From positions 91,199,960 to 91,263,959 of the forward strand of contig OX377206.1 of the NCBI GenBank assembly GCA_947396885.1: DNA of 64,000 nt, in the 5' to 3' direction. Source of the stretch: Heligmosomoides polygyrus polygyrus. Its lineage: Eukaryota; Nematoda; Chromadorea; Rhabditida; Heligmosomidae. The notes beneath the pieces were generated by a model, which was not told the DNA's origin, made no database searches, and saw only the letters and a list, made by a program, of their open reading frames with translations. The translations under genes were made by a program, and so were the position numbers. Shown in pieces: positions 38,505-57,300 of this stretch (position 1 is its first letter; each line of letters starts with the position of its first letter).

Positions 38505-38644
38505 GATAAATATATATTGGGCAGAAAAACAAGCATCTATTATTCTCTGAAAAAAAATGATAGAAGCCTGAATAGAAAAGCACCTCTACATTGATCGAGG
38601 TGAAATCGGTGGCGTAAAAAAAATTATCTGCATATAATAAAAAA

Positions 38645-38682
38645 CCAGACGTTCAACGGCCTGAGGGCCGCCAAACGTCTGG
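38645..38682. repeat. Strong hairpin, copy 1
   Basis: CCAGACGTT pairs with AACGTCTGG, and inside it CGGCC pairs with GGCCG around a TGAG loop. An inverted relative with the same stems but a different loop lies at 42715-42751. Confidence 0.65.
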
Positions 38683-38804
38683 TTGAGGCTTCGCCCCAAA
38701 CCCGTAGAATAGAACACCCGAACGTCTTCTTCTCCTCTTTAGACCTTCTCTCATTCATTAAAAAACTGGTTTTACTATATAGAATGGTATAGCGGAATAG
38801 GGCA

Positions 38805-39335
38805 AAACAGATCCAGCACCTTCACTGGACCCCCCTTAACAAGTCCCTTATCACTGGTTCCCCTTTATTGTCAGCCCTTTTTCGGTTCACCCTTCACTGG
38901 CCCCCCTCCCCTTACATAGTAGGTCTCTACTACTGCTCCGGTCCCCTCTTCGCTGGTCATCCTATCCTTCACCGATCCCCATTATTGGTCCCACCCTCAC
39001 TCGTCCCCCTTTTATTCATCAACCCTTTTCCGGTCCCCTTTCACTGGACCCCTTCCCCCCCCCCCCATTCACCGGTCCCCATTACTGGTACCTTCCTCAT
39101 CGATCCCCCCTTCACCTGTTCCCCTCTTCACTGGTCAACATTCCACCGGTCCCCCTTCACTGGGCCCCTCTCCCCTCCTTCACCGGTTCCCCTTCACTGG
39201 ATCCCCCCTCACCGGTCTCCATTGCTGGTCCCACCTTCACTGGTCCCTCCTTTATTGGTCAACCCTTTACCGGTCCCCCTTACTGGAACCCCATCCTTCA
39301 CCGGTCCCCCATTACTGGTCCCACCTTCACCTGTA
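38805..39335. repeat. C/T-rich minisatellite, units of about 15-17 bp
   Basis: Variants of CCCCCTTCACTGGTCC and CACCGGTCCCC repeat throughout. The plus-strand open frame is a by-product of low complexity. A shorter relative lies near 48290-48375. Confidence 0.8.
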
Positions 39336-39795
39336 ACACGTCGTGTGAATCCGAACCCTGGCGCGACATCGGTGACACATCTTTTGAACCCGGACGCCTG
39401 TTGAACAACGTCGGTGACATGTGTTCTCAACCCGAACGTGCTTTGCGCGACAACGGCGACACGTCGTCTGAATCTGGAAGGTCTTTCGCGACATTGGTGA
39501 CACCTCTTCTGAATCCAGGCACCGATGAGCGACGTCGGTGACATGTCTTCTCAAGCCGAACGTGCTTTGCGCGACATCCTTGACACGTCGTGTGAATCCG
39601 GAACTCCTAGCGCGACATCGGCGACACGTCGTCTGAATCTGGAAGGCCTTTCGCGACATTGGTGACACCTCTTCTGAATCCAGGCACCGATGAGCGACAT
39701 CGGTGACACCTCTTCTCAACCTGAACGTCCTTTGCGCGACATTGGTGACATGTCGTCTGAACATGGACGCCTGTCGACAACTACAACAGTTGACA
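39336..39795. repeat. 42-bp minisatellite with higher-order structure
   Basis: Units centred on GACATCGGTGACAC recur about every 42 bp for roughly 11 copies. A block starting TCGCGACATTGGTGACACCT at about 39486 repeats about 168 bp later, four units on. As 42 is divisible by three, long minus-strand frames run through it. Confidence 0.78.
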
Positions 39796-52951: not shown

Positions 52952-53245
52952 AGGATTAAGGCTAAAGGTCGTCGTTAATCAATCCTCGGGATGCGCCACT
53001 CATCTCACTTCTGTAGAATGTCGTGGAGGAAATTTGAAAGCCGACGATAAGGCCTATAAGATGACATGTGGCAGCCAGCCCAATGGACAATGGTGTCTTC
53101 TTCGCATTCATGCGTGATCTCAGTCCACCGACTACGAATAAATGCGAAGCTTGGTTGGCTTAGGTAGGAAACCCGAACCCAAAACCTGGAACCAAGTGCA
53201 AGCGACAGTCGACGCCTCCTCCGACTGTGCTACCACATACCCTTC
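52952..53245 (-). mobile_element. SINE-A copy, diverged, in the right duplication unit
   Basis: The tail side has GTCGTCGTTAATCAATCC, the end is GGGATGCGCCACTCATCTCA, and the head is GACGCCTCCTCCGACTGTGC. It occupies the position equivalent to 41325-41560. Confidence 0.72.
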
Positions 53246-54271
53246 AAACGAAATGGTTGGGTTGGACGAGCCCCGTTCTTCTTGAATCGATCCGCAGTGT
53301 ACGATAGAGCAGCGCTCCCATTCAACTACGCTCGCCCTTCGTCATCCGCTCTCTTTTTAGTAGATGTAGCATCAAATCTACCGTCTAGCCGGTTTCTTAA
53401 GGCGCTAGCCTGCTGGCCGGAGATTGTAGTTATTACGTGTTGAGCTAAAAGTTAAGGATATGACGCTATCCGCGTCCCTCAAGCGACTAGTGCTTACTGG
53501 GCTACTCTGGCACATAACAAGGAAGAATGGCGATATGGCGTCTATTCGAGGGAATCAAATGTCACCGTGACTGCATGTGATGTTAAGGCAACTTCTTCAC
53601 ACACTATTCACTTTCTATTACTGTTTTGTACTTTTCAGGCTACCAAACACGAACCATTTCTCATGCACACTACACGGGTATTACCCTATCAGCCCAATAC
53701 GGTTGGCTCCGAAAAACACTCAACAAATGACAACAGTTCCGATGTTCTGGTGTCTGCTTGGTTGAATACGTACGCCTCTAAATTTCACATAGAACGACCA
53801 CTGAATCCATTACAATTACAACAGACATACAGAATTTAGACCACGTACAATGAAATCCATTACGATGCATAAGTGGGTTTTAGAAACTATAAATGAACTA
53901 ACTTAGTCCATTCTGTCAACTGGAAGTTTAACGTCGCTCCTCATTAGAGAATGTTACGAAATCAGAGATTTATTATTCATATTTTGACTGACGTACATGA
54001 CAAAAAATGAAAGGAAAAAATACTTTCATTGTCATATAAATTTCAGAAATGATAACGTCGCAGATGTCGTCTATGCTTCGCTACCATCGTCGCCTCCATC
54101 GTCCATCGGTCCTACAACGATGTCATTTACTATCAAAAACAGGAAGGTGAAGCACTCAATGGAGACTCAGTATTCGGCTCAATATTAAGTGCAAGTCCTT
54201 GCGTGGATGCAGAGCTGTGGTCAGAATCACGACAAGAAAAACTCCTGTCCACTGTCTAAAAAATGACAAAC
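53246..54271. other. Downstream intron or flank of the Ig gene
   Basis: It matches 41540-42955 and 44323-45251 of the left unit. It is the reference for the empty LINE site (CTATAAATGAACTAACTTAG near 53888-53907). No further exon after exon I is recognised. Confidence 0.6.
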
Positions 54272-54362
54272 CTTCGATGTTCAAAGTGAGCTCCACGTTT
54301 GCCTCTCCTGCCTCGTTCTTAATGTTGCACGTGTACGTTCCAGAATCTTTGGCCTTGTAGTT
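54272..54362 (-). CDS. Ig gene exon I (Ig3, C-terminal part)
   Basis: It encodes NYKAKDSGTYTCNIKNEAG and EANVELTLNIEG, the last strands of the third Ig domain including the Cys. The acceptor is TTCTTCAG and the donor GTTTGT. It ends in phase 1 and has decayed copies at 45252 and 45936. Confidence 0.92.
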
Positions 54363-57300
54363 CTGAAGAAATGTGGAATAGAACCCAGAACTAGATAAAG
54401 GTCACCTACACATCGACAAAACTCACCTTCAGCTCAAGTTTCGCGGTGAAAGTGTTGTTCGGTCCATCGGGAGTGCTCTTGAACTGAATCCTGGTCGACT
54501 CCTTCATCTTCTTTCCCTTCGGGTTAATCCACATCACCTAGAGTCACAAGTTTGTGACTTCGTACTAGTCGTAAAAAAAAACTGAACCAGTGTATCGTGT
54601 ACGCACCTCGGGGTTACGATCGGCTTGGTATCCAATATCGAACACAATGGCTGGGTCTCCAGAATCCGACGTAACTTGCAGGATTTGTGGCTTCCGTGTG
54701 AATGTGGGCGCTCCTTGGGGTACTAAAGCAGCAAATAATCGTTTTTGCTTCGATGCGAGGTAAAAACGGAGCATACGAACCCTCGAATTTCACAGTGAAG
54801 GTGGCCGTCAGCTTTCCGGAATCGTTCTTAGCTGTGCAGATGAATTGGCCGGCATCCTTCTCTTTGGTGGGCTCCTAAAACGTCAGATGAAGAAAAAACT
54901 GCATTCGCTTCTGAAAGCTGAACGAACCTTGATCTCCAGCGCGGCATAGTAGATCTGGTTGGCTTCCTCTCTGAGCACGATGTTCACTCGATCGGACTGC
55001 GCCACAATTTCATCCCCCTGCAAGAAAAACCGAACGTAACAGGTGTGACCCACGCTCTCCTAGTGCTCATGCTTCTTGTGGCGTAAAAACAAAACCATAG
55101 CTTCGCTTCGGTTCAATCGGCAGATAGGTACGTCATGTGGTGCCGAACTGTTAGAAGTGCAAGCAAAGCAATGGACAGTGCAAAACAGCGATAGCTAACC
55201 TTGTGCCAGACAAATGTGGGTTTCAAGATTGACTTCGCTCGGAATTCCATAACCATCACTTGACCATCATCTCGCGACGATATTTGTGGCTTCTCCACGA
55301 ATGTTGGGGAAGAGAAACCTGTGTGACTTGGCATATAGTAGAACGACTCACAGCATTACTGTTCAGGTGTTTGAAGAAACGAAGAATACACTCACCGGTG
55401 AGTTTTAGGTTGAAATTTGCGTTTCCCTTTCCGTGGGGGTTTACGATGGCACAACGATAACCTCCCGCGTCACTATCGGCGAGATCCTGCAACGAATTGA
55501 GCCCTTTTGGGTAACAAAACCTGAAGGTTTCATGTAGATGCTTTGCTACTAAACATTTTGCCTCTTTTCTTTTTCAGCAATTAGTCCTGCAGGCAAACAT
55601 AAAAACCAAATAATACATGGTCAATGTGAAAACCGACCTCAATTACAGCCCATCTCCAACTTGGGTATAGTCAATACACACACTAGTAAACAGTCATGTC
55701 GCTTACACCATCAATCACTAGCATCTTCGGAAAGTTACACTGATCCTACTAGTTGTAGTCGACTTTATCTACACCATTTTATTGAGAGAAATTGCCAAAC
55801 ACTCAAATTATCATTCCAGAGTGATGTTTTCCCTTAGATTATGGACGGAATAATCGAGAATCTGAACTGAAACTGTGCTCGTGCATCTGAGAAAACTGTT
55901 ATCACAACGATGGGAATAATCGCGAAAAGAGATTCGTAAACGGGAAGGCAAAAATAAGACGAAAAGCTGAGTTGAACTGAAATTTGGAAGCAACAGGATT
56001 GGATGGTTGGACAAAACCCTCTTCCCACCCAATTAAAATAGTTCTAGGGGTTCTTCATTGTGATCCTCGGTTTCCTGATCTCAACTCACATTGATGTACC
56101 GTTCTTAACATTAACAAGTGCACTCACACTTTTGAAACTATTACCGCGATGACATATAATTCATTCTAAGGATTGCTGACAATATCCATCGCTAATCCAA
56201 TAGTGTAGAAATATGTTGATACAGGATGTTTTGCTGCGATCTAAACACTTGTGCCAGGCAGAACTCGAACCCGTACCTTGCTTTTCGGGCAGCGACGCTA
56301 CGCCTTACACTACCGGCGCTGCTTGACCACACGTTTTGAATCGTAACAAAACATCCTGTAACAACATATAACCTCTCTACCAGCCACTCCAATCTTAAAC
56401 AAACGTGCTCAAACATTGTATATAAGTAAATTTATTGTGGAGAACATTACTGCTTAGATACCTATACACTGTACTTGAGGAAGAAGGTGACAATATCCAT
56501 GAAAATCCACTCATAATGGAAAGGATTACAGCCTAGATGCTTAGCCAACGCACTGAGGAAAAAACCGTTTCACGCATACCTTAAAACCCCAAAAATATTT
56601 GATGAGCACATTTTTTGATCAGCTGCTCATGCACTAAAGTGATACTGACACTCAAAAAGTACGATAACATGCCTTACCTTGATCTGGAGAATGGCAGAAT
56701 AGGAGTCATTTCCCTTATTGTCAAGCTTGAAGTTGAAACGAGAATCCGCCTTGACTTCTTTCTGAAAAAGGAACGGATACAAGGTAGGTCTTTGATAGAA
56801 AAATGGTAATAAGAAAGGTAAGCATCTAGCAATCATAGTGGGGCACAAGGCAGTTACTCCCACCCCTATTGAGTTCTGAACCCTCATGATGGATCAACAT
56901 CGATACTCCAAGATTAGCGGTGAGCAAGAATGTTACACACTCCTCCGGTTCTTACACTGTTCCCCTAACGCATACGGAATGCAAAGCCGAGCACATCGAA
57001 ACCCACATCGTAAACACGACGTGCGACAGCATATCCATACACTTCATGTCGGAGAGGACATCATGCTTTACATCGTTCGTTTCAACGTCACAGTGTAACT
57101 CTAGTTGACACTTTCAGAACTCGGGAAAATCGGTGGAGAAAATACTCCTTGAACTTGAAATCTTCCAAACAGAAGCCGTTTTTATATTCATGTGCAAATC
57201 TGTCCCTATCTCACCACTACCCCGAACCTTTTGTCAACTAACTGAAGAGCCATAACAACTTCTACAAGCCACCACCACACCACAATATACCACTTCATAA

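What the first reader, a model, noticed from the sequence alone, without database searches (positions are those of the whole stretch)
38505..55035. Tandem segmental duplication carrying Ig exons, with an almost exact junction
Two units of 7.9 and 8.7 kb share collinear blocks across their length and meet at about 46360-46383. The right unit contributes intact exons E-I to the Ig gene. The left unit has the same exons shifted, fused or truncated. This is a partial gene duplication caught in decay, possibly lying inside a giant intron of the same gene.
Basis: seen in the sequence. Interest (0 to 1): 0.75.

Follow-up and report, generated by a model that had tools for sequence, protein, structure and literature searches.

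The report
Decaying partial copy of muscle gene
The back half of a nematode muscle gene (dim-1), with several kilobases behind it, was copied once in tandem, and the extra copy, which lies behind the intact gene, is falling apart; this is an ordinary kind of gene duplication, seen here in unusual detail.

Summary
Left unit 38495-46349 and right unit 46385-55037 share ten collinear blocks (72-94% identity), chain score 2324 bits against at most 146 for segments clear of both units. The gene is dim-1 (disorganized muscle protein 1). Its complete 10-exon, 321-aa copy runs on the minus strand from 58254 to 54071 and so ends inside the right unit. The left unit lies about 7.7 kb beyond a finished gene, not in a giant intron. 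It is a 5'-truncated tandem copy (exons 5-10 plus downstream DNA) with an out-of-frame G/I exon fusion, a 1-bp frameshift, a lost splice donor and transposon insertions. Substitutions in its exons E-G fit neutrality. A UniRef Heligmosomoides protein, P0070, reads through the junction zone, 21 of 21 residues identical, which argues against assembly error; it keeps exons E-I open, so part of the damage is lineage- or haplotype-specific. Mosaic similarity hints at exchange among dim-1 copies. New member of a known kind: a partial tandem gene duplicate becoming a pseudogene.

The parts
54071..58254 (-). complete dim-1 gene, 10 coding exons: 58254-58126, 56761-56678, 55486-55396, 55318-55200, 55017-54928 (E), 54874-54781 (F), 54722-54607 (G), 54537-54427 (H), 54362-54272 (I), 54111-54071 (J, stop); 321 aa
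   Evidence: nine GT-AG introns, open frame, 314 of 321 residues as in P0002; Pfam I-set, 3 stretches
46385..55037 (.). right unit: exons E-J of dim-1 plus about 7.7 kb downstream of the gene
38495..46349 (.). left unit: 5'-truncated tandem copy (no exons 1-4)
46350..46384 (.). duplication junction zone; homology to either side is not clear within it, so the break is placed only to within about 35 bp
   Evidence: read through by P0070
46240..46329 (-). left copy of exon E, open, splice sites kept (S to C, L to Q)
46096..46189 (-). left copy of exon F, open, cysteine changed to Ser (ISTANND for ICTAKND)
45935..46037 (-). first about 58 bases of exon G fused out of frame to the last part of exon I; following donor GT changed to GA
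45738..45778 (-). extra exon J copy (GPMGDGGDDGSEA, stop) behind the fusion
   Evidence: coordinates by register with 54111-54071
45583..45732 (.). about 150-bp element behind that exon J copy; a second copy at 44906-45048 behind the other
45518..45584 (-). last part of exon H (PNNTFTAKLELK) and its donor
45378..45515 (.). palindromic MITE-like insertion in L; 91% copy in L007
45252..45341 (-). exon I copy with a 1-bp deletion (frameshift)
45054..45094 (-). second exon J copy (GPIDDGGGDGSEA, stop)
   Evidence: coordinates by register with 54111-54071
42955..44321 (+). piece of a retroelement, non-LTR-like by its (AAT)n tail (recall), in L only: RVT_1 frame with stops; the site is uninterrupted in R (53897/53899)
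47364..52997 (.). stretch of R without + strand counterpart in L; holds RT-like frames on the minus strand (by eye, not scanned) and inverted repeats

Best explanation
A DNA-level tandem duplication copied a stretch from intron 4 of dim-1 through its 3' end to several kb beyond. This left the full gene (right) followed, in the direction of transcription, by a 5'-truncated copy of exons 5-10 (left) that lacks exons 1-4 and the gene's own start. Shown: structure, junction zone, intact right gene, defects in the left copy, a substitution ratio that fits neutrality. Inferred: the left copy is a pseudogene in this genome; patches of it have recombined with or been overwritten by other dim-1 copies; the duplication is older than the split between this lineage and that of P0070.
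For: Collinear blocks and controls. Low copy number of the two stretches counted genome-wide. Complete 10-exon gene in R ending at 54071. L defects: G/I fusion out of frame, lost donor, 1-bp deletion, lost cysteine, MITE-like and RT insertions. Exons E-G of L against R: 7 nonsynonymous and 3 synonymous codons, neutral expectation 0.77, p = 0.71. Exon divergence about 0.4 of intron divergence (10/244 against 12/126, p = 0.06; 10/130 against 32/184, p = 0.018), as expected if only R is constrained. Introns are copied, so DNA-mediated. P0070: first 21 residues identical to window 46421-46359 minus, then 10 residues that match only in part, then exons E-I; its 31 leading residues (93 nt) span about what the window does (92 nt).
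Against: Segment L2 has 1/86 exon differences from R against 27/154 in its intron, too conserved for simple decay. L1 and L2 share none of 10 informative sites (0 against 4 and 6), so L2 is not a plain duplicate of L1, although the same element follows exon J in both. Introns in the E-G block are closer to R (12/126) than intron 9 of L1 (30/155; p = 0.028). Only about 2.3 of 7.9 kb of L aligns. No transcripts or reads were available. These tests were chosen after seeing the alignments, and the feature bounds are off by one to four bases from the final model.
Confidence: 0.86

Rival explanations
1. False duplication: two divergent haplotypes of one locus placed in tandem by the assembler.
For: Heligmosomoides genomes hold hyper-divergent haplotypes, and haplotigs had to be removed from the references (passages of PMC10682056); a third divergent dim-1 copy sits on unplaced contig C1041. 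Such haplotypes could in principle differ as much as L and R.
Against: P0070, whose left copy differs from this one, carries the same junction zone. L lacks exons 1-4. The junction piece occurs once in the genome. Blocks downstream of the gene differ by 18-28%, against 1.67% mean heterozygosity given for H. polygyrus individuals.
Confidence: 0.05
2. The left unit is a working alternative 3' cassette: exon 4 sometimes splices into left exon E.
For: Left exons E and F keep open frames and splice sites; in P0070 exons E-I are all open, E-G identical to R in 100 of 100 residues.
Against: In this genome the frame is lost at the G/I fusion and the next donor is gone; substitutions in E-G fit neutrality. 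P0070 is, as far as I can tell, a gene model, and it runs on past exon I without reaching exon J.
Confidence: 0.05
3. Copies moved by retrotransposition or by a transposon rather than tandem duplication.
For: Other dim-1 pieces lie on C39, C52, C82 and C1041.
Against: Introns and downstream DNA are copied collinearly and head to tail.
Confidence: 0.02

Closest known systems
Partial (incomplete) gene duplicates in nematodes (review PMC3449122, passages seen)
   Same: Incomplete duplication of a gene; the longer paralog is usually the ancestral one (13 of 14 C. elegans pairs in the passage seen).
   Different: None in kind. Here the copy is 5'-truncated and in tandem, and junction, insertions, an internal rearrangement and another state of the copy (P0070) can be seen.
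dim-1, disorganized muscle protein 1
   Same: The right gene encodes it over its full length (314 of 321 residues as in Nippostrongylus P0002, which has an 8-residue insert).
   Different: A decayed partial copy follows it, and further fragments lie elsewhere in the genome.

Membership tests
dim-1 ortholog (right gene) | full-length match to named DIM-1 proteins, I-set domains | tested here: met
partial tandem gene duplicate | head-to-tail collinear copies of part of a gene with introns and flank | tested here: met
partial tandem gene duplicate | junction is real, not an assembly artefact | tested here: inconclusive
   P0070 crosses the zone, which supports it; reads could not be examined
pseudogene (left copy) | disabling changes in frame and splice sites | tested here: met
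pseudogene (left copy) | substitutions at the neutral ratio | tested here: inconclusive
   E-G 7:3, p = 0.71, only 10 codons; segment L2 is more conserved than that
pseudogene (left copy) | no stable transcript or protein | not testable with these tools
   no RNA data held
segmental duplication inside a giant intron of its own gene | an exon of the same gene on the far side of the copy | tested here: not met
   terminal exon and stop at 54111-54071, before the copy; minus-strand tblastn of P0002 and P0070 over the window plus 10 kb on each side gave no hit below E = 1 beyond the left copy

The most novel reading that the evidence does not exclude
The left unit is not simply dying: beside a conserved muscle gene it exchanges sequence with it by gene conversion, and in the P0070 lineage it still offers an open, in-phase alternative set of 3' exons with a changed last Ig domain.
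Probability: 0.06. Interest if true: 0.5.

Novelty: new member of a known kind. Interest (0 to 1): 0.27.

Why it matters
One partial duplication can be seen in two states, a more broken one here and a less broken one in P0070, with the intact parent gene beside it, so the order of decay steps and possible gene conversion could be worked out. It is also a warning for gene-finders: P0070, an entry in a public database, is probably a model that reads through a duplication junction.

Tried and rejected
Giant-intron idea: rejected, terminal exon found in the right unit. Extending homology into the junction zone: 46362-46384 against the left flank is equalled or beaten by 467 of 4945 random segments and against the right-hand continuation by 4581 of 4945; 46350-46361 against the right-hand continuation by 243 of 5000 and against the left flank by 1294 of 5000; so no filler or microhomology is claimed. 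L2 as a simple duplicate of L1: not supported by site patterns. Pfam gave nothing for 28376-28708. In print: a search for Heligmosomoides, tandem duplication and muscle listed one paper, on another protein family; that and searches are my only searches bearing on it. Genome-wide copy number of 41560-41890 was asked seven times and never answered.

Full report
What was checked. A self-comparison shows ten collinear blocks linking 38495-46349 to 46385-55037, one extra partial block, and five weak hits that do not fit the order or strand. The chain scores 2324 bits. Of ten overlapping control segments set against the right unit, the eight clear of the left unit score 72-146; one that reaches 1.4 kb into the left unit scores 90 and one that overlaps it widely scores 1198. 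All eight segments set against the left unit score 72-122, and a shuffled left unit gives no hit. Block 40030-40781 (752 bp) matches at full length only itself and the right unit in the 656-Mb genome; the other 18 of 20 matches are repeat pieces of about 100 bp or less. The junction piece 46330-46500 has 2 matches: itself and, over 96 bp, the left unit's start. The tool calls such counts lower bounds. The other blocks were not counted genome-wide, but contig C1041 aligns with 53254-54905 in one piece, so those blocks belong to the gene's own 3' flank.

The gene. Minus-strand exons spell a complete protein of 321 aa from 58254 to 54071 with nine GT-AG introns (the model is mine, no annotation was seen). 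It has three I-set stretches and finds proteins named Disorganized muscle protein 1 among 87 hits; Nippostrongylus P0002 has 314 of the 321 residues identical and an 8-residue insert. The terminal exon (GPMDDGGDDGSEA, stop) lies at 54111-54071 in the right unit, with copies in the left unit at about 45778 and 45094. So the right unit starts in intron 4 and runs past the end of the gene, and the left unit begins about 7.7 kb beyond the stop codon.

The left copy. Exon E (46329-46240) and exon F (46189-46096) keep frame and splice sites but carry changes, including loss of a cysteine in F. Exon G is cut after about 58 bases and joined out of frame to the end of exon I; the next donor reads GA instead of GT. 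Then come an exon J copy, a 150-bp element, the end of exon H, a palindromic MITE-like insertion, an exon I copy with a 1-bp deletion, a second exon J copy and a second copy of the element. A retroelement piece with an RVT_1 match sits at 42955-44321, at a site uninterrupted in the right unit.

How the copies evolved. In exons E-G the left copy differs from the right by 7 nonsynonymous and 3 synonymous codons, which fits the neutral expectation (p = 0.71). Exon divergence is about 0.4 of intron divergence in two blocks (10/244 against 12/126, p = 0.06; 10/130 against 32/184, p = 0.018), as expected if one copy is free and the other constrained. Two results do not fit simple decay. Introns in the E-G block differ less (12/126) than intron 9 of L1 (30/155; p = 0.028), and segment L2 has 1/86 exon differences but 27/154 in its intron (p = 4e-5). 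Of 10 informative sites in that segment none groups L1 with L2, 6 group L2 with the right copy and 4 with C1041. I read this as exchange among dim-1 copies or divergent haplotypes; it is inference from short alignments, with tests chosen after the fact and feature bounds one to four bases off the final model.

Evidence for the junction from elsewhere. UniRef protein P0070 (Heligmosomoides polygyrus, taxid 6339) begins with 21 residues identical to the translation of 46421-46359 on the minus strand, from the right unit's start into the junction zone. The next 10 residues match the window only in part and in another frame, then comes exon E; the spacing is 93 nt there and 92 nt here. P0070 has exons E-G identical to the right copy (0 of 100 residues differ) and H-I changed at 8 of 68 (p = 0.0006), and shares with L1 the change K to N in exon I. 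So it is a left-type copy without the internal deletion, and not a product of this very sequence. A second search listed no other protein named as Heligmosomoides among 82, but most rows bear no full name. That its accession predates the 2023 assembly is my recall.

Which organism. The genome has 656,174,362 bases in 1130 contigs. The H. polygyrus reference is reported as 656.6 Mb and H. bakeri as 649.2 Mb; H. bakeri is often called H. polygyrus; their mean synonymous divergence is 6.6%; both hold hyper-divergent haplotypes (passages of PMC10682056 seen, not the whole paper). I infer that the window is Heligmosomoides polygyrus, probably that reference. If so, copies that differ by 10% in introns 4-6 and 17-28% in the other introns and downstream blocks point to a duplication older than the species split, which agrees with P0070.

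Verdict. A real, probably old, partial tandem duplication of dim-1 whose downstream copy is a pseudogene in this genome. Partial duplicates are a known structural class (passages of PMC3449122). The interest is modest: good anatomy, one unexplained mosaic segment, and a probably misleading public protein model explained.

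Noticed in passing
C1041 of G000 (L008, L009, L019), about 7445-13488: Third partial dim-1 copy (exons 3-10) on a 23.8-kb unplaced contig, near a tandem array at 3270-6677; the splice acceptor of exon G is lost.
   Followed up: partly
C39:86213460, C82:35325, C52:36443008 and C52:7095654 of G000: Scattered pieces of dim-1: exon 2 with its flanks on C39, parts round exons F and J on C82, exon F alone twice on C52.
   Followed up: partly
21083-22362 and 27533-28817: 1.28-kb direct copies, 97.4% identical; one frame looks like a mariner transposase by recall, but Pfam gave no match for 28376-28708.
   Followed up: partly
2975-4473: Array of a diverged 311-bp tandem repeat, about 4.5 copies.
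   Followed up: no
39032-39776: Minisatellites of 15, 41, 45, 124 and 165 bp in a C-rich stretch (GC skew -0.27 over 38001-40000), within a part of the left unit that has no counterpart in the right.
   Followed up: no
44906-45048 and 45583-45732; C1041:22194-22348: A 140-150-bp element that follows both exon J copies in the left unit at the same point, is absent there from the right unit, and is about equally distant in all three places (81-86%).
   Followed up: partly
6130-6423, 19809-20105, 25534-25807, 29631-29926, 33262-33539 and others: Dispersed repeat of about 290 bp with many copies in both orientations.
   Followed up: no
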